Shown: positions 3,166 to 25,300 of the stretch, piece after piece
Numbering within the stretch: the stretch's first letter is position 1
Layout: the number at the start of each line of letters is the position of its first letter
IMG/VR virus record: IMGVR_UViG_3300020055_000058
Coordinates: 1 to 38,161 of that record
Origin: a virus
Reading direction: 5' to 3' (one strand)
DNA length: 38,161 nt
Notes under the pieces: generated by a model
What the model saw: the letters and a program-made list of their open reading frames with translations, nothing else
The model's database searches: none
What the model was told of the DNA's origin: nothing
Translations under genes and position numbers: made by a program

Positions 3166-3173
3166 TATTTATA
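3166..3173 (-). promoter_or_regulatory. T4-type late promoter, immediately upstream of ATG 3159
   Basis: The minus strand reads TATAAATA, a perfect T4 late promoter box, overlapping the stop codon of the oxygenase gene at 3169. Only 6 bases (GATTAT) separate it from the ATG at 3159. With T4 spacing, transcription would begin at or one base before the start codon, giving a leaderless message. Confidence 0.65.
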
Positions 3174-3864
3174 GGATCAAGTTGCCGCTTTCGTCTATAT
3201 CATACTCAAAATTTGAATCATTCCAACCAATTCGTGAATTTTTATCATCCATGCAATTGACATCTAAATTAAAAGATATACTGTATCGATCTTTGTTTGT
3301 TAGATTGGGTTCGACCATATGCATTAACCCACTAGGAAAAATGTATAAGTGACCTGTCTTAGGTTGTATCTGATAAGATTCAATCATTCTATTGTTGCCA
3401 GGAAATGCTCCTGCAACTTTATGATTTGTATCTATGAAAGTTAAATCGCCTTCGTCACCATCAGCATGTATATAAAATACACCTGAATAGAAACAACCAT
3501 TGTGTAAGTGAGGTCTGTTCCATGCACCATTGTCATTAATGTTAGCCCATGAGTTATGCATATCAACACGGTGTGCATCTTTGTTTAATCCCATGAAAGG
3601 TAATAACTCGTCTCTGACTAAACGTTTAATTGATCTTATACATTTAATAAAAGTTGGATGTTGATCGCAACCATCATTTGATTGCCAACCTGTATATGCA
3701 TTTGATATCTTTCGACCAACAGGATCTTTCTTTCGCATACCATCAATCTCTCTTTTTAAGAGATCAAAGTATTCTGCATTCATCAATGTAGGTTCTTTAT
3801 CTGCATCTTTGCCTAAAAAATCTCTATGAAAAACAAATGCAGGAAATAATAATTTTACACTCAT
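3169..3864 (-). CDS. 2OG-Fe(II) oxygenase-like protein (2OG-FeII_Oxy_5 type)
   Basis: The product has 231 residues. The W-x-N motif near 106-108 and N-R-P-H-L-H-N-G at 116-123, followed by Y-S-G-V-F-Y-I, match the iron-binding strand of the PF13759-type 2-oxoglutarate/Fe(II) oxygenases. His182 in G-L-M-H-M-V-E-P-N would be the distal iron ligand, and Arg193 in R-Y-S-I-S-F-N the 2-oxoglutarate contact. Such enzymes hydroxylate protein, lipid or nucleic acid substrates; the substrate here is unknown. The start codon overlaps the upstream stop by 4 bases (ATGA), with a GAGGT ribosome site, so expression should be coupled to the DUF6065-like gene. It is the second oxygenase of this cassette. Confidence 0.8.
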   Translation of the reverse strand: MSVKLLFPAFVFHRDFLGKDADKEPTLMNAEYFDLLKREIDGMRKKDPVGRKISNAYTGWQSNDGCDQHPTFIKCIRSIKRLVRDELLPFMGLNKDAHRVDMHNSWANINDNGAWNRPHLHNGCFYSGVFYIHADGDEGDLTFIDTNHKVAGAFPGNNRMIESYQIQPKTGHLYIFPSGLMHMVEPNLTNKDRYSISFNLDVNCMDDKNSRIGWNDSNFEYDIDESGNLIL

Positions 3865-4709
3865 TCTTCTACCTCATTATGAAAAGGACATTCAGGTGGT
3901 GGTTCATCTTCTTTGAAGTATTTACCTTTTTCTTGCCAATAACCTTCGTTTCTATATGGCCCAAGTTTAGTTCCCCTTAGTCTTGATTCATCGGAGTATT
4001 CTCTTCTACCTTGTTCATCCATAGACATCATTTCTGCATGTGAAGTTACTGAACTTCTGTTGTCCTGAAATTCTCTAGGACTACGTAATGTATACGTAGA
4101 ATTCCATTCTTCTCTTTTAAAAGGAATAACCTGACACAATGGTGTGCCTTTTTTTATAGTAAATGAATGATTAACTCTAGGATAAAAAATTATTTGTGAA
4201 TTATCTTGGCTCACATTGAACTTATCTGTATCGATAATTCCTTGCCATGTAGCAAAGTATCTATTTTGAAATAAGAAAGGGTCTAAGTAAAGACATGAAT
4301 AACCCTCTGGTGTTATAATGTTCCATGGGTTTCTCATTTTAAATGCATCTTTGACAGGACCATCATCGCCAAAATAATCGAAAGCATTTTCAAATTGTTC
4401 TTTGGGGTGTGTAGGTGAAGCGTAATGTTCTCCTGAAGGATCGAAAGTTCTAACGTCTGTTGTACTTACACCGTCTTTTGCATTGTTACCTACGATAACT
4501 TCCATGTCTCTGTTTGCAAGTAGGTACCAACCACTCTTTAACCAATCATCCATAGCAGGACATGCTCTGATAGTTTGAGTATTAACACCACGTACTACTG
4601 CATTTACTTTAATTCTTTTCCACCAATCTGGATGCCATTTCTTTGCAAGAACTGGTTTAAAGTCTCTGAGAGTCTTCTCGTTATATGTAATAAAGTCTAT
4701 CGTTGGCAT
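3861..4709 (-). CDS. DUF6065-like protein, function unknown
   Basis: The product has 282 residues. It carries a R-A-C-P-A-M-D-D-W-L-K-S-G-W segment near residues 48-61, an S-Q-I-I-F-Y-P-R-V-N-H-S-F-T-I-K-K-G-T segment, and P-L-C-Q-V-I-P-F-K-R-E. This layout fits the DUF6065 proteins of marine phages and bacteria from memory; no biochemical role is established. The C-terminus is charged and ends C-P-F-H-N-E-V-E-E. The gene overlaps its upstream oxygenase neighbour by 29 bases and its downstream oxygenase neighbour by 4 bases. Being wedged between two oxygenase genes suggests a shared pathway, possibly as a substrate-binding or cupin-like partner, but that is inference. Confidence 0.7.
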   Translation of the reverse strand: MPTIDFITYNEKTLRDFKPVLAKKWHPDWWKRIKVNAVVRGVNTQTIRACPAMDDWLKSGWYLLANRDMEVIVGNNAKDGVSTTDVRTFDPSGEHYASPTHPKEQFENAFDYFGDDGPVKDAFKMRNPWNIITPEGYSCLYLDPFLFQNRYFATWQGIIDTDKFNVSQDNSQIIFYPRVNHSFTIKKGTPLCQVIPFKREEWNSTYTLRSPREFQDNRSSVTSHAEMMSMDEQGRREYSDESRLRGTKLGPYRNEGYWQEKGKYFKEDEPPPECPFHNEVEE

Positions 4710-5418
4710 TATAAAACTCTTCGCTAACTCCTATCTCTACTTCATCGCCTCTTAAAACAATTGATCTTCTATCCATGTATCTAGCAGTTTCATTTGGTGC
4801 ATCTGCACCGTGTGGTATTCTGCCGTCAAACATTACTAATCTATTTGGTACAAACTCCACTTCAGCGATTTGGTGGTTTTTAATATGTTCGTTTCTACCT
4901 TCTAAACCCTGTTGAGGTTCATCATATAATCTTAATGTGCCACCCCATTCGGGATTCCAATATGTATTGTAATAGTATAAGAAAGATAAATTCCATGAAT
5001 CATTAGTATCACAATCTGCATGAGTTGTTCCATGACAACCCATTGTCTGTGAGTTTAAACCCATGTACTGAAATCTTTTCCATTTGAAACCGAAATCTGT
5101 ACATATTCTTCTATTTAGATAGTGAGCAGGATAAGAATCTTTCTTATCAATATCTCCTTCAACATTGTGAAATCCGAAATCTTTATTGTCCCGATCAGCC
5201 TTGAAGAAACTTGCACCCCAAAAACTATGGTGAGGTAATCCTGTTGGGCTTTCGCTACCCACTTGATTTGTTTTAGACCAAATATTACTGCTTGTAAATC
5301 TTTGATTAATCCAATGCCATATAGAAGTCTCTAAGTAATTATCAATTATGTAGACTTTATCTAAAGGTAATGATTGAATATGAAAAGGAGAATCAACCTT
5401 TTCTACAAGCAGGCTCAT
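4681..5418 (-). CDS. 2OG-Fe(II) oxygenase, prolyl-4-hydroxylase-like
   Basis: The product has 245 residues. The H-x-D iron-binding pair is His133/Asp135 (G-T-T-H-A-D), followed by W-N-L-S-F-L-Y-Y-Y and E-W-G-G-T-L-R-L-Y. The distal histidine is His203 in D-G-R-I-P-H-G, with Arg217/Arg218 as 2-oxoglutarate contacts (D-R-R-S-I-V-L-R). This order and spacing match the P4H-like 2OG-Fe(II) dioxygenases, which insert a hydroxyl group using O2 and 2-oxoglutarate. The N-terminal ~50 residues (Y-I-I-D-N-Y-L) are the usual lead-in. It overlaps the DUF6065-like gene by 29 bases. The proline-rich fibre proteins encoded just upstream are plausible substrates, but nothing in this sequence proves it. Confidence 0.85.
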   Translation of the reverse strand: MSLLVEKVDSPFHIQSLPLDKVYIIDNYLETSIWHWINQRFTSSNIWSKTNQVGSESPTGLPHHSFWGASFFKADRDNKDFGFHNVEGDIDKKDSYPAHYLNRRICTDFGFKWKRFQYMGLNSQTMGCHGTTHADCDTNDSWNLSFLYYYNTYWNPEWGGTLRLYDEPQQGLEGRNEHIKNHQIAEVEFVPNRLVMFDGRIPHGADAPNETARYMDRRSIVLRGDEVEIGVSEEFYNANDRLYYI

Positions 5419-5419
5419 T

Positions 5420-5971
5420 TTATGCTATTAATGACTTTTGAGGTGATGGAAAATTATTTGAATAATACTCAAAGTCTTGTAGTGTGTCTTCTCTTGTTTC
5501 GCCTATTTCATTACATACATTAACGTATACATTCCATATAACGTCTGAATATTCCATAACTCTTCTTGCATCTGATCTTAAAGGGTGATTTGAGCCCTCT
5601 CTTCCTGCTATAGTTACTTCTAGTAAATCACGGAAACCATATGCTTGTACTTGATCATCGATATAGTTTTGAGCCATATCAGATAGTTTGTTTGCATACT
5701 GATTGTTTAATGAAACACCAGCAGGTGGTTCAGACTGATTGATATATTCTTCGATAGCATCTATTTCATCTGAGTTTAGATTTATTTTGACCTGATCGTT
5801 AAAACATTTATCTTCTTCCCATTTCTCAATTTTAACTTCGATGTCATCGTACACCAATACATCATATTCAAAACCAAGATTTGGTCTATCTGTGTTTTCG
5901 AAAGAGTATTCTAATCCATTTGGTTTTCTAATGATTAGATTACTGTTTTCATCATAAATTAACATATTCAT
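5420..5971 (-). CDS. Hypothetical protein, possible tail-fibre assembly factor
   Basis: I place the start at the ATG at 5971 (183 residues, beginning MNMLIYDENSNLII), because a GAGG ribosome site lies 5 bases upstream. An in-frame GTG at 5989 would add six residues but sits inside a promoter-like sequence. The N-terminal half is a beta-rich acidic domain. The C-terminal half (Y-G-F-R-D-L-L-E-V-T-I-A-G-R-E-G, then L-R-S-D-A-R-R-V, then V-I-W-N-V-Y-V) resembles the helical C-terminal part of phage tail-fibre assembly proteins (DUF4376-like). The match is weak. Position beside fibre genes supports a chaperone role. Confidence 0.6.
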   Translation of the reverse strand: MNMLIYDENSNLIIRKPNGLEYSFENTDRPNLGFEYDVLVYDDIEVKIEKWEEDKCFNDQVKINLNSDEIDAIEEYINQSEPPAGVSLNNQYANKLSDMAQNYIDDQVQAYGFRDLLEVTIAGREGSNHPLRSDARRVMEYSDVIWNVYVNVCNEIGETREDTLQDFEYYSNNFPSPQKSLIA

Positions 5972-5980
5972 AATTACCTC

Positions 5981-6009
5981 ATTATACACTTGTGTGTGTT
6001 AAATTTCAA
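5981..6009 (-). promoter_or_regulatory. Possible sigma70-type promoter before the oxygenase cassette
   Basis: On the minus strand TTGAAA (6009-6004) is followed after exactly 17 bases by TATAAT (5986-5981), preceded by TG. This is nearly the bacterial housekeeping consensus. Transcription would start near 5974, only about 3 bases before the ATG at 5971, so the message would lack the GAGG site. It could feed the downstream oxygenase genes with host RNA polymerase. In AT-rich DNA such matches can arise by chance. Confidence 0.4.
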
Positions 6010-7610
6010 GAGACTTTATTCGCTCTCGCATACGCTCTTTCATATACGTCTAACATATTTATATCACTGGTATCCATGTCTTTTATCCATGGGCCACCAC
6101 GTGTCCAGTGAATTGCTAAAGCATGTGGTTTGTCTAAATGTGTTTCATATCCTTCAGTTATAATATGTCTAGGTGGTATTCTACTGATCTTGTCTGTCCA
6201 TTCAAATTGATGTAAATACTTTCCTGACTCTGTATTCACTACTTCTGGTGTTAACTTCTTACAGTCTTCGTGTGCATTATTGAATACCATAAGACTAGAC
6301 CACAATTTCTTAGGATAAGAAACATTCTTTTCGCCATCAAATTTAGTATCACTATGATTTTCGAAATCGTATTGTACACAAGCAATAGCATCTTTTGGGT
6401 CTAAGAAATAGAATAGTGGTAGTATAGACTTACTAAACAATATGTCATCATCTAAGAAGATACTGAAACCTTCATAATTTTCTAGGTAAGGTATTAAGAA
6501 TCTACTATATGTAAACTCTGTTGATTGATTAGCATACTCTCTAGTGTATTCAGGTATCTTTGATACATCTAGTATCTTAATATTAGGTTGCCAGTCTTTT
6601 ATAAATTCATACATGTCACCTTTACCAAAACCATATTCAATTCCTTTTTGAAGCAACTTAACATTTGTTTCAGCAAGATCACCATGACGACTATCGTAAC
6701 CCACATAGATTGATATAGGTTTGCCTTTTGCCATTTTCATAATGTTTTTATTGAAGTCTGTAACTGTACTTCTAAAACCGATATCAGCAAAAGCACTATG
6801 CATTTCTATAAAACCCTCTGTATATGTAAATGAAAGATGTGTTGGTTTATCTTTCTTTTCAACAAAGGCTTTCCATAATTCAATTACTTGTTCAGCTGAT
6901 AGAACTTCTGAATCAAATAAATCAAACTTATCCCATACAAACATTTCCATATCTGGATCATCTATCATTTCAAATACTGCTGATCTTACAGAACCTGGAT
7001 GTATTCTAAGAGTGTATCGTTCTTCTTCTGAAGAAGGTTTGTTCACTACACCTTGGATTGGATTCCAAAGGCCTTCATGTTTGATACTATCAATTAACCA
7101 GTGTGCTTTAGCACTGTGATAATAAGTTGAATTATTGATTTCTAATTGTCTTTCAGTTGGGCCTTCTGCACCAAAAACATATTTTGTATAGTCTGTTATC
7201 TTTTGATATTCATCATTTCGGTTTTTGAAATCAAAGCCAGAATGACCAGGTATTGGTGTTTCAGGTTTTTCAGTATAACCGTACTGCAAATAATATTGAT
7301 AGACATATGCTTGATGTTGTAATTGATTAAACGGTTGTAATTTTGTTGTATCAGAATAATCGTATAATCTTTCGTCTATCAATTTAGAAGCTTCTTTCCA
7401 TTTAACATGCTTTAGTTTTGGTAATTTATTCTTCATCAACCAATCTAAAGACTTATATGCTTCAGTTTCCTTGTAGTCTTTGGATAGTTCGATACTACCA
7501 ATATGACAATGATCCATGAAAATGACTTCATCGCCACTATCTGGCCCAAATGGTGATCTTCTATTTTGAAATGCTTCTTGTACGGCTTCTAAGGTTTCTA
7601 ATTTTCTCAT
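6006..7610 (-). CDS. Glycosyltransferase (GT-A fold, GT8-like) with ParB-like N-terminal segment
   Basis: The product has 534 residues. From residue ~299 it looks like a GT-A nucleotide-sugar transferase: S-I-Y-V-G-Y-D-S-R at 300-308, F-T-Y-S-R-F-L-I-P near 367-375, the metal-binding F-L-D-D-D-I-L-F at 385-392, S-S-L-M-V-F-N-N near 439, and I-H-W-T-R-G-G-P-W at 500-508. The first ~290 residues are different. Around 172-212 they contain I-D-S-I-K-H-E-G-L-W-N-P-I and L-R-I-H-P-G-S-V-R-S-A-V, which resembles the G-x-x-R signature of ParB/sulfiredoxin-like domains. The likely role is transfer of a sugar to a virion or host-surface molecule. It directly follows the repeat-fibre genes. Confidence 0.8.
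   Translation of the reverse strand: MRKLETLEAVQEAFQNRRSPFGPDSGDEVIFMDHCHIGSIELSKDYKETEAYKSLDWLMKNKLPKLKHVKWKEASKLIDERLYDYSDTTKLQPFNQLQHQAYVYQYYLQYGYTEKPETPIPGHSGFDFKNRNDEYQKITDYTKYVFGAEGPTERQLEINNSTYYHSAKAHWLIDSIKHEGLWNPIQGVVNKPSSEEERYTLRIHPGSVRSAVFEMIDDPDMEMFVWDKFDLFDSEVLSAEQVIELWKAFVEKKDKPTHLSFTYTEGFIEMHSAFADIGFRSTVTDFNKNIMKMAKGKPISIYVGYDSRHGDLAETNVKLLQKGIEYGFGKGDMYEFIKDWQPNIKILDVSKIPEYTREYANQSTEFTYSRFLIPYLENYEGFSIFLDDDILFSKSILPLFYFLDPKDAIACVQYDFENHSDTKFDGEKNVSYPKKLWSSLMVFNNAHEDCKKLTPEVVNTESGKYLHQFEWTDKISRIPPRHIITEGYETHLDKPHALAIHWTRGGPWIKDMDTSDINMLDVYERAYARANKVS
6056..6063 (-). promoter_or_regulatory. T4-type late promoter inside the 3' end of the glycosyltransferase gene
   Basis: The minus strand reads a perfect TATAAATA. 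The expected start near 6050 would give a leader of about 80 bases before the ATG at 5971, including its GAGG site. It could drive the 5971-3169 cassette late in infection. Confidence 0.45.
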
Positions 7611-7616
7611 AATATA

Positions 7617-7641
7617 AAATATAGTTTATTTAACTATATTT
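7617..7641. other. Perfect AT-only inverted repeat between repeat protein and glycosyltransferase genes
   Basis: Ten bases (AAATATAGTT) are repeated in inverted form after a 5-base loop. The element covers the end of the 7640-8770 gene and stops 7 bases before the glycosyltransferase ATG. As RNA it would fold just ahead of that start codon, where no Shine-Dalgarno is visible. It also overlaps the late promoter box at 7637-7644. A role as a weak terminator, translational hairpin or binding site is possible but unproven. Confidence 0.5.
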
Positions 7642-7644
7642 ATG
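7637..7644 (-). promoter_or_regulatory. T4-type late promoter before the glycosyltransferase gene
   Basis: The minus strand reads CATAAATA followed by TAG, overlapping the stop codon of the upstream repeat protein. The predicted start near 7631 gives a leader of about 20 bases before the ATG at 7610. Confidence 0.5.
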
Positions 7645-8770
7645 ACGTAATTGGAGATGCTGGCCACTGTTGTGACAATACACCGTCCCAACGATTCACT
7701 GGTGTTCTACCTTGTGTAGCGTAAGTACTTGGTGATCTATGTTGATAGGTAAACGGAGTTCTACCTTGTCTAGAATATGTACTTGGTGATCTATGTTGAT
7801 AGGTAAACGGAGTTTGACCTTGTCTTGCATATGTCACAGGTTGCCTATGTTGATATGTACTTGGCGATTGTGTTATTCTAGGATCTCTGTAAGTACTTGG
7901 TGATCTGTGTTGATATGTGCTAGGTACACGATATGCTCTAGGATCTCTGTAAGTACTTGGTGATCTATGGTTATACGTGCTAGGTACTCTATAACTTCTT
8001 GGATCACGATATGTAGATGGTGATCTGTGTTGATATGTGCTAGGTACACGATATGATCTTGGGTCTTGATATGTAGACGGCGATCTATGTTGATATGTGC
8101 TAGGTACACGATATGATCTAGGATCACGGTATGTAAATGGCGATCTATGGTTATATGTAAACGGTGACCTATGTTGATACGTAAACGGTGATCTATGTTG
8201 ATAAGTCGAAGGTTGTCTAGCGCCTCTAATATTAGGTTCTTGTGCTGATACAGGGTGTCTGTAACCTGCTGGTTGTTGTGCTGATCTAATATTAGGTTCT
8301 TGTGCTGATACAGGGTGTCTATAACCTGCTGGTTGTCTAGCATTACCAATTACTGGTTGTTGTGCTGATACAGGTGCTCTATATGCTGCTGGTTGTCTAG
8401 CATTTCTAATATTAGGTTCTTGTGCTGATCTGATATTAGGTTCTTGACCGCTTCTAATATTAGGTTCTTGTGCTGATCTAATATTAGGTTGTTGACCATT
8501 CGCAATATAAGGCGACTGGAAAGTAAACGGTTGCCTTGCGTTATTAGGTTGTTGAGCATTTGCAATATAAGGCGACTGGAAAGTAAACGGTTGCCTTGCG
8601 TTATTAGGTTGTCTAGCATTTGCAATATAAGGTGACTGATATGTAAATGGATTCTGGAATGTAAATGGATTCTGGAATGTAAATGGATTCTGGAAAGTAA
8701 AAGGTGTCTGCACAGGAACAGAAGCCTGTGTAATACCTTGAGCATTTGCTGGATAAAAACCTGTTGCCAT
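7640..8770 (-). CDS. Pro/Tyr/Arg-rich repeat protein, probable fibre or adhesin
   Basis: The product has 376 residues, nearly all short repeats of 6, 8, 10 or 12 residues: four copies of Q-N-P-F-T-F/Y near the start, then S-P-Y-I-A-N, A-Q-E-P-N-I-R-S, Q-P-A-G-Y-R-H-P-V-S, and many R-S-P-S-T-Y-Q-H and D-P-R-S-Y-R-V units. I see no lysine or cysteine, one leucine, and methionine only at the start. Only the last ~20 residues (R-W-D-G-V-L-S-Q-Q-W) are non-repetitive. The protein should be strongly basic and extended. It begins MATG like the Hint-bearing gene 11 bases upstream, and both use the same repeat vocabulary, so they are probably paralogues. No known domain is recognised. A virion fibre or surface-adhesion role is inferred from its place among fibre genes. 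Confidence 0.8.
   Translation of the reverse strand: MATGFYPANAQGITQASVPVQTPFTFQNPFTFQNPFTFQNPFTYQSPYIANARQPNNARQPFTFQSPYIANAQQPNNARQPFTFQSPYIANGQQPNIRSAQEPNIRSGQEPNIRSAQEPNIRNARQPAAYRAPVSAQQPVIGNARQPAGYRHPVSAQEPNIRSAQQPAGYRHPVSAQEPNIRGARQPSTYQHRSPFTYQHRSPFTYNHRSPFTYRDPRSYRVPSTYQHRSPSTYQDPRSYRVPSTYQHRSPSTYRDPRSYRVPSTYNHRSPSTYRDPRAYRVPSTYQHRSPSTYRDPRITQSPSTYQHRQPVTYARQGQTPFTYQHRSPSTYSRQGRTPFTYQHRSPSTYATQGRTPVNRWDGVLSQQWPASPITS
8225..8344 (-). repeat. Two tandem 60-base repeats in the 7640-8770 gene
   Basis: Positions 8225-8284 and 8285-8344 are nearly identical, with only a few differing bases. Each encodes a 20-residue unit containing E-P-N-I-R-S and A-G-Y-R-H-P-V-S. The near identity points to recent duplication. 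A second pair of 60-base repeats lies at about 8521-8640, and an 18-base unit encoding Q-N-P-F-T-F repeats about four times at about 8641-8700. Confidence 0.8.
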
Positions 8771-8781
8771 TTTACTTTAGA

Positions 8782-10557
8782 TTACTTAGGTGATGGTTTA
8801 AAGAAGAAGAAGTTGTGAGCTAATACACCATTTGCAAAGAAATTGTGATTGTCGCCAACGTTCTTCAAGTTATACACCTGTTGTGAATCTTTCTCCTCTA
8901 TTTTAATTATTTCTAGTCCTATTTCTGTACCTAGTACAGCATCTGTCATGGTCATCAAATGATCACCGACTGCGATTTCTGAATTTACAAATTCATCTCC
9001 ACCTTCTTCTTTGTGGAATTCTTTAAATTTCTCTAAGTTGATAACACCCCATTCACCATTCATTGTTCTAAATGGATGTTCTGAAGTTGTTTCAAGTATT
9101 CTACCGTCTGATAAATGTATCTCATGTATTGATACTTCTCTTGGTTGCATCAACTCTTCGACTACACCGATCTCTAATTTATTTGTCTCTTCGTTCCAAG
9201 TCATTACGTCTTGACCAACTTCTACTGTTTCAATTGGTACATGACTGCCATCGCCCAACCATATCATTGTGCCGGCAACAAAACATCCTTTGCCACCTCC
9301 AGGAATGTTACCAGGTATTGGACCAAACGGTTGATAGAAGTACACTGCTGGGAAGATAAATGGATATCTTGCTGTTTGTTGTGTAGTACTTGGTTGCCTT
9401 GCGTTATTTGGTTGCCTTGCGTTGTTTGGTTGCCTTGCGTTATTAGGTTGTCTAGCAGCAACTGGTTGTCTTGCCTGATACGTAAACGGCGCACGGAATG
9501 TAAATGGAGTCCTTGCGTTATTAGGTTGTCTTGCCTGATACGTAAACGGCGCACGGAATGTAAATGGAGTCCTTGCGTTATTAGGTTGTCTTGCCTGATA
9601 CGTAAACGGCGATCTATGGTTATACGTAAACGGTGATCTGTGGTTATATGTAAACGGTGATCTGTGGTTATACGTATACGGTGATCTATGTTGATACGTA
9701 AATGGCACCCTATATGATCTTGGATCACGGTATGTAAATGGTGATCTGTACGCATACGTAAACGGTATCTGATATGATCTTGGATCACGGTATGTAAATG
9801 GTGATCTATGTTGATACGTAAATGGCACCCTATATGATCTTGGGTCTCTATATGTAAATGGTGACCTATGTTGATACGTAAACGGTGTTTGTGCGTTTCT
9901 AATATTTGGTTCTTGTGCAGACCTAATATTTGGTTCTTGACCGCTTCTAATATTAGGCTCTTGAGCAGCAACTGGATGTTGATAAGATGCTGGTGTTTGT
10001 CTATTTCTTATAAACGGAGTCTGAGCACTTACAGGGTGATTATACCCAGCTGGTGTTTGTGCGTTTCTGATAAACGGATTCTGTGCATTAACAGGATGTT
10101 GATAAGAAGCAGGTTGTTGTGCGTTTCTGATAAACGGATTCTGTGCATTTACTGGATGTCTATAGAATGCTGGTGTTTGTCTATTTCTTATAAACGGATT
10201 CTGTGCATTAACAGGATGTCTATATGATACAGAGTTTTGTGCATTCGCAATATAAGGCGATTGAGCATTCGCAATATAAGGATACGGCTGTTGTGCATCT
10301 CTTATAAATGGATTCTGTCTATTAGCAATATAAGGATACGGCTGTTGTGCATCTCTTATAAATGGATTCTGTCTATTAGCAATATAAGGATATGGCTGTT
10401 GTGTAGGTTGTTGACCTGATGCGTTATTCCACCCACTAGGAGTTTTAATGTAAATTTGATCTACATCTTTCCAAGTGTTTGAAGCAGTTTTAACCCATGC
10501 ACCTTGGGTTGAATTCCAACCTGAGGGGGTTTTTACTTTCTGTGAGCCTGTCGCCAT
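8782..10557 (-). CDS. Repeat fibre protein with C-terminal Hint (intein-like) domain
   Basis: The product has 591 residues in three parts. Residues 1-50 hold two K-T-P-S-G-W-N motifs and I-Y-I-K, a small beta module seen in marine phage structural proteins. Residues ~51-400 are an array of Pro-rich units such as Q-Q-P-Y-P-Y-I-A-N, R-Q-N-P-F-I-R-D, R-S-P-F-T-Y-R-D and R-Q-P-N-N-A; most combine into 20-residue blocks, and the array has no Lys, Cys or Leu. After a Gly-rich linker (P-G-G-G-K-G), residues 425-582 form a Hint domain ending H-N, followed by nine residues, FFFFKPSPK. The Hint domain predicts self-cleavage or transfer of the fibre's thioester. A late promoter (10581-10588) and an AGGA site precede the ATG, so it starts its own transcript. 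Confidence 0.88.
   Translation of the reverse strand: MATGSQKVKTPSGWNSTQGAWVKTASNTWKDVDQIYIKTPSGWNNASGQQPTQQPYPYIANRQNPFIRDAQQPYPYIANRQNPFIRDAQQPYPYIANAQSPYIANAQNSVSYRHPVNAQNPFIRNRQTPAFYRHPVNAQNPFIRNAQQPASYQHPVNAQNPFIRNAQTPAGYNHPVSAQTPFIRNRQTPASYQHPVAAQEPNIRSGQEPNIRSAQEPNIRNAQTPFTYQHRSPFTYRDPRSYRVPFTYQHRSPFTYRDPRSYQIPFTYAYRSPFTYRDPRSYRVPFTYQHRSPYTYNHRSPFTYNHRSPFTYNHRSPFTYQARQPNNARTPFTFRAPFTYQARQPNNARTPFTFRAPFTYQARQPVAARQPNNARQPNNARQPNNARQPSTTQQTARYPFIFPAVYFYQPFGPIPGNIPGGGKGCFVAGTMIWLGDGSHVPIETVEVGQDVMTWNEETNKLEIGVVEELMQPREVSIHEIHLSDGRILETTSEHPFRTMNGEWGVINLEKFKEFHKEEGGDEFVNSEIAVGDHLMTMTDAVLGTEIGLEIIKIEEKDSQQVYNLKNVGDNHNFFANGVLAHNFFFFKPSPK
8812..9285 (-). other. Hint domain, bacterial-intein-like type
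   Basis: Block A is C-F-V-A-G-T-M-I-W-L-G-D-G, with Cys425 as the first residue. Block B is E-T-T-S-E-H-P-F-R-T, supplying the T-x-x-H activating histidine. Blocks F and G are V-Y-N-L-K-N-V-G and N-H-N-F-F-A-N-G-V-L-A-H-N, ending at His581-Asn582. All residues needed for N-S acyl shift and Asn cyclisation are present. The residue after Asn582 is Phe, not Cys, Ser or Thr, so standard protein splicing is not expected. That combination is typical of bacterial intein-like (BIL) domains, which cleave or pass the N-terminal part to another nucleophile. At 158 residues there is no room for a homing endonuclease. Confidence 0.9.
9481..9611 (-). repeat. Exact tandem 60-base repeat in the Hint-fibre gene
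   Basis: Positions 9481-9540 and 9541-9600 are identical base for base, and the first ~11 bases recur at 9601. Each copy encodes a 20-residue block containing R-Q-P-N-N-A, R-T-P-F-T-F-R-A and P-F-T-Y-Q-A. Identity at synonymous sites indicates very recent duplication, unlike most of the array, where the same peptides use different codons. Confidence 0.9.
10271..10390 (-). repeat. Tandem 54-base repeat in the Hint-fibre gene
   Basis: A 54-base unit starting at 10271 recurs at 10325 and partly from 10379. It encodes the 18-residue block A-Q-Q-P-Y-P-Y-I-A-N + R-Q-N-P-F-I-R-D. The copies are almost identical. Confidence 0.8.
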
Positions 10558-17667: not shown

Positions 17668-18597
17668 CTAATTATTTAATTGGGAATATGGGACTTTTGT
17701 ATGTATTTTTTCTACTGTAGTTGGATCAGTTTTTACGTATGCTTCTTCTAATTGTTTTACAGTACCGTCTGCATCTTTAACATAAACTTGTTTAACTTCT
17801 GCTACAGGACCTATAGGTCTTCTGCTAGAATATGTTATCTGATATGTAAATGGTGATCTATGTTGATATGTAGTTTGTACAACAATGTTACCACTTCTTG
17901 TATTCTGAGCATTTGCAATATATGGTGAAGGTTGAGAAGCAGAAACCCTATATGTATCTGGCGATCTATGTTGATACGTAAATGGTATTCTATGTTGATA
18001 GAACGATGGTGATCTATGTTGATACGTAAATGGTGTTCTACCTGTTGTAGGATATGTTATAGGTTGCCTATGTTGATATGTTGTTGGTGTTCGCCCTGTT
18101 GCCTGATATGTTGAAGGCTGTCTTGCATCTCTAATAAATGGATTCTGTCTATCAACAGGATGTCTGTAAGTTGTAGGTGAAGGTTTATTTCTTATAAACG
18201 GATTCTGTTTATTTACAGGATGTCTGTAATTAGCTGATATACGATAGCTACCAATTATCGGATTCTGTCTGTTAACAGGATGTTGATAAGCTGCTGGTTG
18301 ACGTTGATTTGCAACATAAGGTGATGGTCTATTTCTAATAAACGGATTCTGTTGTTGTGCAATGTATGGTGATTGAAATGGACTTCTTGCGATAGCAGCT
18401 GTCTGTGCGTTTGCTATGTAAGGAATAGGCACTCTAGTATTAGCAACTGTCTGAGCGTTTGCTGATGCACGGGCATTAGCAATGTACGGCACAGGCGTAG
18501 TACCGTTAGTAGAATTTTGTCTATTAGCAATATAAGGATACGGCTGTTGTCCTGGCGTTGCGTTTGAATTGCTATATGTTACTTGTACGGTTGGCAT
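17668..18597 (-). CDS. Pro/Tyr/Arg-rich repeat protein with YVK-type C-terminal module
   Basis: The product has 309 residues. Residues ~15-255 are the same kind of array as in the two repeat genes at 7640-10557: Q-Q-P-Y-P-Y-I-A-N, R-Q-N-P-F-I-R, Y-R-H-P-V-N/D, R-S-P-F-T-Y-Q, T-G-R-T-P-F-T-Y. The last ~50 residues are different (V-K-Q-V-Y-V-K-D-A-D-G-T, E-A-Y-V-K-T-D) and resemble the small W/Y-V-K beta module at the N-terminus of the Hint-fibre protein. Lysine is nearly confined to that end, apart from two residues in the array. The start lies 2 bases before the stop codon of the next repeat gene, so the two are a co-transcribed pair. A fibre/adhesin role is inferred. Confidence 0.78.
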   Translation of the reverse strand: MPTVQVTYSNSNATPGQQPYPYIANRQNSTNGTTPVPYIANARASANAQTVANTRVPIPYIANAQTAAIARSPFQSPYIAQQQNPFIRNRPSPYVANQRQPAAYQHPVNRQNPIIGSYRISANYRHPVNKQNPFIRNKPSPTTYRHPVDRQNPFIRDARQPSTYQATGRTPTTYQHRQPITYPTTGRTPFTYQHRSPSFYQHRIPFTYQHRSPDTYRVSASQPSPYIANAQNTRSGNIVVQTTYQHRSPFTYQITYSSRRPIGPVAEVKQVYVKDADGTVKQLEEAYVKTDPTTVEKIHTKVPYSQLNN

Positions 18598-18598
18598 T

Positions 18599-20263
18599 TT
18601 ATACTATTATTGGCCCCCCACTACCTGCATTATATGCTGCTCTTAAACTTATGGGGCTTGATGACCAAGAACCGTTGAAGTATGAAGCTATATGAAAATA
18701 TGTATAATAAGTGTCTGTGCCTTTTGTTGCTTTTATTCCAAAATAAACATCATTTGATGTTAATTGTACTGGATTACCTGTGCTGTCGTATACACCCCAC
18801 TTAAAAAATCTAGCAGTGCGAGTACCATTAAATCCACCCCTTGAAGTTGAACCAGACCAGAAATTATAATATTGGCCTCTGGTTTTTCCACAAACATGTG
18901 GATAAAATCCATAACTGTTTCCACCTCCTCCGTAACAATTTGTTTGAGCTTGAGTACCTGATACCGATTCACCACTTGCATAATATGCTACATCAAAATT
19001 CCAAGTATCGTCAATTATACCATTAGCATTCAAATCGGTAATAGGCATATAAAATCTATAATAAAAACTCCAACCACTATTACTAAAAGAGTTATAATGA
19101 CCATACGATATTCTAAAAGCCCCTAAAGGATTTGTCTGAACAGTATTATTGTTAGCTGCAAAATCAAATTGCATATAACAACCACATTCGGTATGATTAA
19201 AACCAGGATTACCAGTTGCTAATTGAAGAGTATTCCAACTTGGTACACTAAACATAGAAGCAGTTCCTGAAGGTGGGTCAGAATTTATATAATTCGTACT
19301 ACCACCAAAAGGATATACATCCCAAACAGGATTACTTATACCTGAGCCCCAAGGTTGAGGGTTCGGTTGATTAGCTAAAGTTGCACTTGTTGCTGTTGAA
19401 CTTCCAGACAGTGCTGATTCGCCTACAATACCTTCATATGATGTTGGTACCTGAGCAGTCGATGGTGACTGATATATGTAAGGCGTTTGGCCTTGTGCTG
19501 AATAAGTCGAAGGCGATTGATAAATGTAAGGCGATGGTCTTTGCGCCTGATACGTAAACGGATTTTGATAAATCGATGGCACCCTATATGTTTGAGGACT
19601 TCTTTGTTGTGCTTGATAAGTTGAAGGCACTCTATAAGGTACAGGTTGTTGATTTGACTCCTGTGCGTTTATATTTGCTGGTGACTGGTGTTGATACGTA
19701 GTAGGTTGTTGTGCCTGATATGTTACAGGATTTCTGTAACTTCTTGGGTCACGATATGTACTAGGTGATCTATAAGCATAACTTACAGGATTTCTGTAAC
19801 TTCTTGGGTCACGATATGTACTAGGTGATTGATGTTGATACGCAACTATAACCTGTGCATTTCTTGGGTCTCTATAAGTTGAAGGACTTTGATGTTGATA
19901 CGTAAACGGTGTTTGTGCGTTTGCAGGATACGGATACGGATTCTGTCTATTAGCAATATAAGGTGATTGTGCATCGGCCTGATAAGTATACGTTTGTTGT
20001 GCGTTTCTTATAAAAGGATTTTGTCTCGATCTTATGTTAGGTTGCTGTGCGTTTCTTATAAAAGGATTTTGCCTATTAACAGGATTTCGATAAATTATTG
20101 GTTGTTGATTCTGATAAGTCGAAGGAGACTGAAACGTATAAGGAACAATCGATGGTTGTTGTCTTATATTTGGTTCTTGAATGTTAGCAGGTTGCCTTGC
20201 TATGTAAGGTTGCTGAAAACTACCGCCATTTAAATTGTGTTTAATGTAAATTTTATCTGCCAT
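18599..20263 (-). CDS. Repeat fibre protein with C-terminal globular (putative adhesin) domain
   Basis: The product has 554 residues. It begins D-K-I-Y-I-K-H-N-L-N-G-G, then an array to about residue 270 with units such as R-Q-N-P-F-I-R-N, Q-S-P-S-T-Y-R-D, P-R-S-Y-R-N-P-V and A-Q-S-P-Y-I-A-N. Residues ~275-554 form a non-repetitive, aromatic- and glycine-rich domain with four cysteines (E-C-G-C, N-C-Y, H-V-C-G). At ~409-418 it has D-L-N-A-N-G-I-I-D-D, which fits an EF-hand/dockerin-like calcium loop. A shaft plus globular tip suggests a receptor-binding protein. Of the four repeat proteins it is the only one with a large globular tip. The ligand is unknown and I recognise no enzyme motif. Confidence 0.8.
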   Translation of the reverse strand: MADKIYIKHNLNGGSFQQPYIARQPANIQEPNIRQQPSIVPYTFQSPSTYQNQQPIIYRNPVNRQNPFIRNAQQPNIRSRQNPFIRNAQQTYTYQADAQSPYIANRQNPYPYPANAQTPFTYQHQSPSTYRDPRNAQVIVAYQHQSPSTYRDPRSYRNPVSYAYRSPSTYRDPRSYRNPVTYQAQQPTTYQHQSPANINAQESNQQPVPYRVPSTYQAQQRSPQTYRVPSIYQNPFTYQAQRPSPYIYQSPSTYSAQGQTPYIYQSPSTAQVPTSYEGIVGESALSGSSTATSATLANQPNPQPWGSGISNPVWDVYPFGGSTNYINSDPPSGTASMFSVPSWNTLQLATGNPGFNHTECGCYMQFDFAANNNTVQTNPLGAFRISYGHYNSFSNSGWSFYYRFYMPITDLNANGIIDDTWNFDVAYYASGESVSGTQAQTNCYGGGGNSYGFYPHVCGKTRGQYYNFWSGSTSRGGFNGTRTARFFKWGVYDSTGNPVQLTSNDVYFGIKATKGTDTYYTYFHIASYFNGSWSSSPISLRAAYNAGSGGPIIV

Positions 20264-22368: not shown

Positions 22369-25300
22369 GCTAATGCTATACATCTAAGACCAGAAATTAT
22401 TGGTACTTGAGATGTGTTTGTAGCCTGTCCTACAATCTTAATTACAAAACCTGTAAATTCAGGTAAGTTGTCTGCTGTGTATTCGTATTCTTTAAAGTTT
22501 CTAGCGTCTTGATCAATAGCTGTGTCAGGACCACCAGTTGAGTTAAAGAATTCAAATCCTAAATCATCTACTGGTGTATCTTCATCGTTTTTGATGAGTT
22601 TGTATAAAACTTTAATGTCTGAGTTAGGTGGTCTAAAGTTATCTGATAAAACTTTCAATGATGTAGCAGGATTCTTTAAACTTACCAATCTTGTTGTGTA
22701 TACCATTGCGTTGTTATCGCCATCTGGTTCTGTTGATGGTACGTAAACTTCACCATCTGATAGATCGGCAGCAGAATCAATATCATTAATTCTGTTCATA
22801 ATACCTAGACAACCAATTGTACCTGTATCAATGTAAGGTGATACGTTTGGATTTGATGATCTCATTTGTAGTAATAATCTAAATGATCTCTGGTTACCCA
22901 TTCTCTCTAATTCGTTGAGGGGTGATGCAACAACACTTGGTCTACTGAAGTAAACGTTATCGTTTAATTTAATAAAGTCATTTGCAGTTCTTCTTACATA
23001 TTCAGTATCTAAGTTTGAATCTTCTGGTGAACCCATACCTGTTCTATTAATACTTGAGAATATTTGAGTATTATTAAATGTTATAGAAGGTATCATTGTA
23101 TGAATTGCATCATAATAGATGTTTCTTGTACTTCTAACTTGACTACCACCGCCATCTACACTTTGAGTTGCAACAAAACTTGTGCCGCCTTCTAAGTCAT
23201 AAGATGACATTACAGATGTTCTAGGTAGAACATTAAATGAGTCTATACTATAATCTTGTAGACTCTCGTGTGTACCGTTAATAGCTGCAACTGGAATACC
23301 ACCCAATGTGTTTTCAACATTGGTGACACTTACTGTAAATGTTTGACTGTCGATTGTGACTGTAATAGTGTCGTTCACTGCGTAGTCACTACCTGGATCA
23401 GTAATCTTAATTGAGTTTACTGCATCTAAATCTCCAGCGTCTACAACTACTTTGACTTTAAGACCTGTACCTGTACCACCTGTTACAACAGCATCATTAC
23501 TTCCACCAGTCTCGTATGTCTGTGCTGTTACGGCAGCACTAATAGCACTTGGTGTGCCAATCTCTACTACGCCATCTTCTTTATCGCCTTTCACGCCTGC
23601 TATTGTTACGTGTGAAGTTGTTTCGTACATACCGTGTGAGTAGTTTAATATCTTAACATAACTTTGACCAGCAAATGTTTGAACTGGATTCTCTTGTAGT
23701 TTTACATCTCCGATAAAATCGTTTTCAAACACAACTTCTGCAACTTTTGAGGTATCGAATTGTGCAATCTTAAGATTGAACTTGAGATCGTCTGTTTGTT
23801 CTGCTGTCCATGTTGATGCGTTTTGTGATAAGAACAATGAACCAGCATATGGTTGTCCTGAAATTGTTTCACCAGTAATTAAATCGTTTTCACCCATTCT
23901 GGATATGAAACATTCGTATTCGTTTGAGTTTGATAAAACTACGAAACAGTATTCTTTACCTTTCTCTAGGTATACAGGCGAATCAAATGTAAATGTTGTA
24001 GCACTTGAACCGTCTTCTGAAATATTAACTTCGTTTGGATTCTTAGATACTGTTGAGAATGGTAATACTAACTGACCTGGATAACCATTCACCATGTTTC
24101 TAACTTGTACTGACACTGGTAATGCATCGTCTTTAGTTCTAAAGAATAGATCAACTGAAGACAACATCATGCCACCATCCATATCTACTAAGAATGATTC
24201 TGCTAATGGATCGACCCACTCTGTCTCACGCAATTCTCTCTCATCGAATATTCTAGGAATTCTAGGATCAACGTCCCAAAAATCTCTAGGGTCATCAATA
24301 GGCGGTGGTGACGGTATCGGCGTACTTGTTGGTGTCGGCGTTGGTGTCGGTGTCGGTGTAGGCGACGGTGTAGGCGCAGGAGTTGTTGTCGGCGCTGGCG
24401 TCGGCGTAGGTGTCGGTGTAGGACTTGGTGTAGGCTCTGGAGTCGGTGTTGGACTCGGTATAGGTGCCTCAGTAGGTTCTGGTGTAGGTGTAGGTGCTGG
24501 AGTTGCAGGTGGTTCTGGACTTGGCTCAGGTGGTGTACCTGTACCAGGTGTTACGTTTAATAACTCACCTCTTCTTACTATTTGTCTCTCAGCAGATAGC
24601 CTTTCAATAACTACTCTACCATTCCTTGTTGATACAATTTCAGTTTGTGAAGCTTGTAATAAACCTTGTGCTTGATAGATTGCATTACCTCGTGATGCTG
24701 GGTTAGAAAGGTTATTTGAACTTGATGTAATAACCATTTCTCTAGCACCAGTTGGGAATCTCTGGAATCTATCGTTAGGTAAACTGAATGTTGCTCTTAA
24801 TCTACCGTTACCATCTGTTTTTACTATTTGATCGTATGATGTACCACCATCTTTACTGTACAGTGTACTGAATGGTTTTACATATGAGTTTACATCGATA
24901 CCATCAAAGAATACGTAATGGTTTGTGTTTGGTTTTAAGTTAACTGCATCTATTTCAATGTCTCTTGGTCTACAGAATGGTACAATTGTGACACTAACAA
25001 TTCTATCGTTACGTGTTTCAACTAACTCTTCTACAACCGATGTTCTAACACCTGTTCTGATCTGAGACTCAGGTGTTTCTGTTACATTTCTTGTAACAGT
25101 AGTATTAGGTGTATATTCACCACCTTGTGAAGGATCACCGTTCCAAGCTGCTGGAACACTTGATAATGTCTCTGTCTCTACAACTGTAGGTTCACCTACC
25201 CATGTAGTCTGCCATGCGTTCCAAACAGTGCCTAATGCGTTTTCGTTCTCTGCTAATATTGCATCGAAGTTGCCTTCTCTGTTAACTCTTACTTCTGGTA

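What the first reader, a model, noticed from the sequence alone, without database searches (positions are those of the whole stretch)
8782..10557. Fibre-like repeat protein ending in a Hint domain that should cleave or transfer rather than splice
The sequence shows a Pro-rich array joined by a Gly-rich linker to a full-length Hint domain (Cys425, T-S-E-H, terminal H-N at 581-582). The next residue is Phe, so the Cys/Ser/Thr needed for splicing is absent. Bacterial intein-like domains of this type are known to cleave or pass their N-terminal partner to another nucleophile. In a virion this could release the fibre, attach it covalently to another protein or to the host surface, or cap it. The array itself has no lysine, so it cannot be its own acceptor except near its N-terminus. 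The nine-residue tail FFFFKPSPK is very hydrophobic and could act as an anchor lost on cleavage.
Basis: partly seen in the sequence, partly recalled or inferred. Interest (0 to 1): 0.82.

Follow-up and report, generated by a model that had tools for sequence, protein, structure and literature searches.

The report
Self-excising Hint domain in phage fibre
A repeat-rich tail-fibre-like protein of a marine T4-like phage carries near its end a 158-residue self-cutting domain of the intein family; related phages have the same protein without it, ending in the same kind of short tail, so the domain looks like an insert that removes itself (probably by an unusual form of splicing) rather than an essential attachment device.

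Summary
The model (pLDDT 89.5) is closest to bacterial-intein-like (BIL) domains.

Related marine contigs gave 30 distinct array+Hint proteins. Cys1 and His-Asn are invariant, +1 is never C/S/T, dN/dS is 0.05-0.38. So it is very probably an active A-type BIL. The FFFF tail is not conserved: no anchor.

What changes the interpretation: 41 distinct relatives at the same locus lack Hint, and most end in a Gly-run plus a short tail, as the Hint forms would after excision. Hint was gained or lost at least five times on the phage tree. An unrelated siphophage tail protein shows a DNA-level empty site: same Gly-run, same ...RAVLRR end, with or without 154 residues of Hint.

Best reading: an intein-like insert with genuine exteins on both sides, removed autocatalytically. 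Published A-type BILs lacking a +1 nucleophile splice inefficiently and mostly cleave, so "rather than splice" is not justified. Ligation versus double cleavage is unresolved. The tail always carries a near-terminal Lys (30/30), leaving a BIL2-like isopeptide mechanism open but unproven.

The parts
8782..10557 (-). array-A gene, 591 aa precursor (N-extein 1-424, Hint 425-582, C-extein 583-591)
10411..10557 (-). N-terminal domain (residues 1-49), MATGSQKVKTPSGWNSTQGAWVKT..., family signature
   Evidence: 27 of about 50 columns invariant in 13 relatives; small sheet at pLDDT about 70-78
9370..10410 (-). Pro-rich array of about 6-8-residue units (residues about 50-396)
   Evidence: tandem repeats; no confident fold
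9286..9369 (-). aromatic then Gly-rich linker, residues 397-424 (...YPFIFPAVYFYQPFGPIPGNIPGGGKG)
   Evidence: resembles the C-terminus of Hint-less L095/L365 ...YPFLYQAPYPFYQPFGGGGG
8812..9285 (-). Hint domain, 158 aa, no homing-endonuclease domain
9283..9285 (-). Cys425, nucleophile for the N-S acyl shift
   Evidence: invariant, preceded by invariant Gly
9076..9087 (-). block B T-S-E-H (491-494)
   Evidence: [T/S]xxHP in 25/25
8812..8817 (-). block G His581-Asn582
   Evidence: HN in 30/30 distinct array Hints
8785..8811 (-). C-extein FFFFKPSPK, then stop
   Evidence: length 4-29 aa and sequence variable, Lys within the last 3 residues in 30/30 relatives
7640..8770 (-). array-B, Hint-less array protein directly downstream in transcription order
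   Evidence: array gene directly follows array-A in most loci with or without Hint
17668..18597 (-). paralogous array protein without Hint
   Evidence: 51% identity over the array
18599..20263 (-). paralogous array protein with a C-terminal non-repeat region, no Hint here
   Evidence: 54% over the array; a relative of it in L099 carries its own C-terminal Hint ending HNK

Best explanation
The Hint domain is an intein-like insert of the A-type BIL kind, sitting between the Gly-rich linker and the short native C-terminus of a phage fibre-like array protein. After translation Cys425 takes over the Gly424 acyl group as a thioester, and Asn582 cyclises to cut off the tail. Because +1 is Phe, the classic branched intermediate cannot form. 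As in characterised A-type BILs, the freed amine of the tail (the alpha-amine of Phe583, or possibly a tail Lys) most likely attacks the thioester, joining array and tail, with a substantial share of unligated cleavage products. The mature protein then resembles the orthologues that never had the insert (array + Gly-run + short tail). Shown here: domain identity, fold, invariant catalytic residues, purifying selection, Hint-plus and Hint-less alleles at one locus, repeated gain or loss, and a DNA-level empty site in a second phage gene family. Inferred: that the chemistry takes place, and that ligation rather than double cleavage is the useful outcome.
For: Fold and profile match to BIL2 (6tmm/6y75), DnaB intein and C. 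thermocellum BIL 2lwy. Cys1, [T/S]xxH, HN and -1 Gly invariant in 25/25 full-length copies; HN 30/30; dN/dS 0.05-0.38. 41 distinct Hint-less array-A proteins at the same locus, most ending Gly-run plus short tail; pairs such as L184 ...RTPVFIPGGGGG|Hint|GEKK and L125 ...RTPYQLPGGGSPGHQQK. Hint label needs 6 changes, 5 forced, on the gp13+gp14 tree of 52 genomes. Second family: siphophage tail protein ...GYGYGGGGGG|Hint|KRDNGRDNRAVLRR against Hint-less ...GYGYGGGGG...RRAVLRR with matching DNA flanks. The Asn and penultimate His stay invariant although the tail can be only 4 residues, which suggests that the C-terminal step matters. A-type BILs splice without a +1 nucleophile (PMC4031507; reference to a BIL trans-splicing structure in PMC7664689).
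Against: No biochemistry. Reviews say cleavage dominates in A-type BILs, and one of them (PMC7765530) says they cannot ligate. Hint-less tails in several clades end in EP rather than Lys, so Hint-plus and Hint-less tails are not strictly alike. The array-family empty site is less clean at DNA level than the siphophage one. Some Hint-less orthologues carry a globular C-terminal domain instead, so Hint could be one of several exchangeable tips.
Confidence: 0.58

Rival explanations
1. Cleavage only: the thioester is hydrolysed, the array ends at Gly424, and Hint plus tail are discarded.
For: Cleavage dominates in characterised BILs without a +1 nucleophile. Hint-less relatives end near the Gly-run, so a Gly-ended array should be functional.
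Against: Does not explain why Asn and penultimate His are invariant when the tail is 4-13 residues, why a tail with near-terminal Lys is always kept (30/30 against 25% Lys/Arg in control ORFs), or why the C-extein of the siphophage protein matches its Hint-less relative.
Confidence: 0.22
2. Acyl transfer: the Gly424 thioester is attacked by a Lys epsilon-amine (of the tail, of another fibre subunit or of a host-surface protein), giving an isopeptide-linked fibre, as BIL2 does in Tetrahymena.
For: The closest solved fold is BIL2, which makes a Lys-isopeptide bond (PMC8616854). All 30 Hint tails have Lys in the last three residues; 22/22 Hint genomes against 7/30 Hint-less have Lys in the last five (Fisher 8e-9). 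Other phage C-terminal Hints have +1 = Lys in 21/22.
Against: The Lys keeps its distance from the C-terminus but not from the active site (+3 to +27). With phylogeny there are only 5 independent contrasts (about 2.3 agree, 0 disagree, not significant). A basic C-terminus is also common in Hint-less relatives. No acceptor was identified.
Confidence: 0.12
3. The Hint domain is an exchangeable C-terminal tip kept as a folded, unprocessed module (receptor binding or capping).
For: The C-terminus of array-A is modular: Gly-tail, globular domain or Hint in different phages.
Against: All catalytic residues are invariant over divergence down to 34% identity, which a pure binding module would not need.
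Confidence: 0.06

Closest known systems
A-type bacterial intein-like (BIL) domains (Amitai 2003; Dassa 2004; C. thermocellum BIL, PDB 2lwy)
   Same: Hint fold, Cys1, block-B His, C-terminal His-Asn, no Cys/Ser/Thr at +1, no homing endonuclease, found in hypervariable non-housekeeping proteins
   Different: Here in phage tail or fibre-like proteins, inserted in Gly-runs next to a very short C-extein, with Hint-less alleles at the same locus
BIL2 of the Tetrahymena BUBL1 polyubiquitin locus (6tmm, 6y75)
   Same: Closest solved fold (Foldseek 3e-11), Lys in the C-extein, processing domain inside a repeat-containing precursor
   Different: Exteins are not ubiquitin-like; about 24% identity; no isopeptide shown here
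Canonical mini-inteins (Ssp DnaB, gp41-1)
   Same: Fold, blocks A/B/F/G, insertion between two exteins
   Different: No +1 nucleophile; host is not a replication or packaging enzyme; sits 4-29 residues from the C-terminus
PT-HINT of polymorphic toxins and FhaB/CdiA-type proteins
   Same: Hint near the C-terminus of a long repeat protein
   Different: No toxin follows; only a 4-29-residue tail
Hedgehog (Hog) Hint
   Same: Gly-Cys-Phe junction (from general knowledge of Hedgehog) and thioester step
   Different: Hedgehog uses only the first step; no sterol-recognition region here and HN is retained

Membership tests
A-type BIL | Hint fold with N-terminal Cys and block-B T/SxxH | tested here: met
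A-type BIL | C-terminal His-Asn | tested here: met
   30/30
A-type BIL | no conserved Cys/Ser/Thr at +1 | tested here: met
   F13 G8 M5 Y2 L1 A1
A-type BIL | non-housekeeping, variable host protein and no endonuclease | tested here: met
   158-aa Hint; variable array protein with Hint-less alleles
A-type BIL | autocatalytic cleavage or splicing | not testable with these tools
   needs expression
Canonical (class 1) intein | Cys/Ser/Thr at +1 | tested here: not met
   Phe583; none in 30 relatives, whereas 13 of 26 phage Hints with long C-exteins have Cys
Canonical (class 1) intein | Intein-less alleles with both exteins | tested here: met
   array loci and cleanly in the siphophage tail protein
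BUBL-type isopeptide-forming BIL | Lys nucleophile in the C-extein | tested here: inconclusive
   Lys present 30/30; phylogenetic contrast underpowered
BUBL-type isopeptide-forming BIL | ubiquitin-like exteins | tested here: not met
   Pro-rich array; Pfam gives only Hint families and a weak repeat match, Cementoin, below its cut-off
PT-HINT toxin release system | toxin domain after Hint | tested here: not met
   9-residue tail

The most novel reading that the evidence does not exclude
A splicing element without a +1 nucleophile that uses the obligatory near-terminal lysine of its C-extein (or a neighbouring fibre subunit) to resolve the Gly-thioester, so that the phage builds isopeptide-closed or cross-linked fibres without ATP, as Tetrahymena BIL2 does for ubiquitin-like domains.
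Probability: 0.1. Interest if true: 0.85.

Novelty: new variant of a known kind. Interest (0 to 1): 0.56.

Why it matters
It gives a natural experiment: the same virion-type gene with and without a BIL, repeatedly switched within one marine phage lineage, plus an unrelated siphophage tail gene with a clean empty site. BIL function has long been unclear (cleavage, variability or splicing). Here the orthologue without the insert shows what the finished protein should look like, so splicing versus cleavage becomes directly testable, and nucleophile-free ligation at a Gly-Gly-Gly junction would interest protein engineers.

Tried and rejected
(1) FFFF tail as membrane anchor: not conserved. (2) Lys-free array excluding self-acceptance: 10/25 Hint arrays have Lys, and the tail always has. 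(3) Cementoin/transglutaminase-substrate match (Pfam 2.7e-5, below cut-off): treated as a composition match of the repeats. (4) Tail Lys as proven nucleophile: overall association strong, but only 5 independent contrasts, so not claimed. (5) Cultured relatives: no Hint in the tail regions of Melnitz and HTVC008M; Hint matches in phage records are weak and mostly in enzyme genes; array matches are two weak ones. (6) Hint-less homologues of L203, a phage protein with internal Hint, +1 Lys and a 370-aa C-extein, would have tested ligation directly: only itself was found. (7) AF2 of the array: no confident structure. (8) Oxygenase/glycosyltransferase link to the Pro arrays: synteny is universal here, but the genomes are closely related and HTVC008M has oxygenases without arrays, so only noted. 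(9) Literature searches found no paper on BIL domains in phage fibres; the library lacks most subscription papers.

Full report
OBSERVATION. The gene lies on the minus strand (8782-10557). The 591-aa product has an N-terminal domain (1-49), a Pro-rich array (about 50-396), an aromatic then Gly-rich linker (397-424), a complete Hint domain (425-582: Cys425, T491-S-E-H494, H581-N582) and a nine-residue tail with Phe at +1. Pfam Intein_splicing matches at 5e-8, slightly under its curated cut-off; TIGR intein N- and C-terminal models match weakly. An AF2 model of Hint from 15 relatives has pLDDT 89.5. Foldseek puts BIL2 of the Tetrahymena BUBL1 locus first (3e-11), then DnaB inteins and the C. thermocellum BIL, in agreement with the profile search. 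The array has no confident predicted structure; only residues about 7-45 form a small sheet.

CONTEXT. The window is a fragment of a T4-like phage: gp6-, gp8-, gp15-type and neck proteins, with baseplate relatives in Melnitz, Mosig and HTVC008M at about 39-41% identity (Melnitz and HTVC008M are recorded as Kyanoviridae). Three array paralogues without Hint lie nearby. A near-identical 105-kb contig holds just this one Hint.

THE FAMILY. A scan with an array paralogue brought 76 loci; about 30 carry an array protein ending in Hint. With further scans there are 30 distinct array+Hint sequences, and 25 distinct ones with a recognised N-terminus in the later, larger set. In those 25, Cys1, [T/S]xxHP, HN and the Gly before Cys1 are invariant, while Hint identity to the window copy falls to 34%. 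The +1 residue in the 30 is F13, G8, M5, Y2, L1, A1, never C/S/T; one very divergent later copy, L342, has Lys. Hint dN/dS between close pairs is 0.05-0.38. By contrast, phage Hints with long C-exteins have +1 Cys in 13 of 26, and other phage proteins with a short tail have +1 Lys in 21 of 22. Tails in the 30 are 4-29 residues, variable, and always have Lys in the last three positions, against 25% with Lys or Arg among 470 control ORFs.

HINT-LESS ALLELES. 41 distinct array-A proteins lack Hint. Most end in a Gly-run plus short tail (L104 ...FFQPFGGGGGSPNMNLK; L125 ...LPGGGSPGHQQK; L095 ...YPFLYQAPYPFYQPFGGGGGGGGGFNSYMPHFDMR, whose pre-Gly stretch resembles the window's YPFIFPAVYFYQPFG); some carry a globular domain instead. 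Removing Hint from the Hint forms on paper gives proteins of the same architecture; at DNA level the flanks of L184/L388 and L143/L159 align, but with gaps. On a gp13+gp14 tree of 52 distinct genomes Hint needs 6 changes, at least 5 forced by well-supported branches. The Hint tree follows the phage tree (rho 0.79, Mantel 0/500) with local swaps such as L137 against L141. 31 of 32 array Hints group together, so one main acquisition followed by loss and exchange is likely.

A CLEAN EMPTY SITE ELSEWHERE. A siphophage tail protein (PHROG 2048) has Hint in L404-L406 and lacks it in relatives 89% identical over the N-terminal part. L404 reads ...GYGYGGGGGGGGGG|154-aa Hint|KRDNGRDNRAVLRR; L407 reads ...GYGYGGGGGGGGGGGGGDRGGGGGRRAVLRR, with near-identical DNA up to the Gly-run and from GCAGTATTGAGAAGATAA onward. 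Here the C-terminal tail is plainly a host-protein extein. Lambda gpI-like tail assembly proteins also end in Gly-run + Hint + short tail (L197, L214).

MECHANISM. Reviews state that A-type BILs have His-Asn ends, form the N-terminal thioester, cut by Asn cyclisation and can then join the pieces because the freed amine attacks the thioester, although cleavage products dominate (PMC4031507); another review reports cleavage without ligation (PMC7765530). BIL2 makes a Lys isopeptide (PMC8616854). From this I take autocatalytic excision as likely (about 0.85). I prefer ligation to pure cleavage because the C-terminal machinery and a short tail are kept so strictly, and because the Hint-less proteins show the expected end product. 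This is inference. The tail Lys keeps position relative to the C-terminus, not to the active site, and with phylogeny taken into account the Lys-Hint association rests on five contrasts, so the isopeptide version stays a minority view.

VERDICT. Observation confirmed, strand corrected. Interpretation partly supported: active Hint yes; 'rather than splice', 'anchor' and 'Lys-free' no. It is a new variant of a known kind: A-type BIL inserts in Gly-runs of phage tail and fibre-like proteins with natural empty alleles.

Noticed in passing
window 3169-7610 (minus): Directly after the array genes come a GT8-like glycosyltransferase, a protein without Pfam match, a 2OG-Fe(II) oxygenase with an intact HAD...H...R pattern, another unknown and a second 2OG-Fe(II) oxygenase. 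This order recurs in essentially every array locus long enough to show it, with or without Hint: possible hydroxylation and glycosylation of the Pro-rich arrays, untested; the genomes are related, so synteny alone is weak.
   Followed up: partly
L404-L407: DNA-level empty and occupied site of a Hint insert in a siphophage tail protein.
   Followed up: yes
L012-L018, L193, L201, L213: A phage protein that by eye resembles ATP-grasp enzymes, carrying one to three Hint-like segments and ending HNK or HNKK; in L012-L018 an upstream degenerate Hint-like segment precedes the intact one.
   Followed up: no
L197, L214: Lambda gpI-like tail assembly proteins with C-terminal Gly-run + Hint + short tail.
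   Followed up: partly
L099:981-2750 (also L207): The other array paralogue (relative of window 18599-20263) has its own, unrelated Hint at its C-terminus, ending HNK.
   Followed up: partly
Genome-contig loci L246-L303: Many long Bacteroidota and CPR/DPANN proteins contain a Hint with +1 Lys, often with a tail of one to a few residues: a widespread C-terminal BIL class whose one-residue C-extein is unexplained.
   Followed up: no
L342:9239-11497: A very divergent Hint in an array-A protein, branch length 1.2-2.7, +1 = Lys: probably a separate acquisition.
   Followed up: no
L148:8496-10608: Array-A gene split by a frameshift within the array in one contig; near-identical contigs are intact.
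   Followed up: no
window 24308-24446 within the 22365-29132 gene: A 2255-aa baseplate or fibre protein contains a Pro-Thr-rich linker ([13 protein letters not shown]...) in mid-sequence.
   Followed up: no
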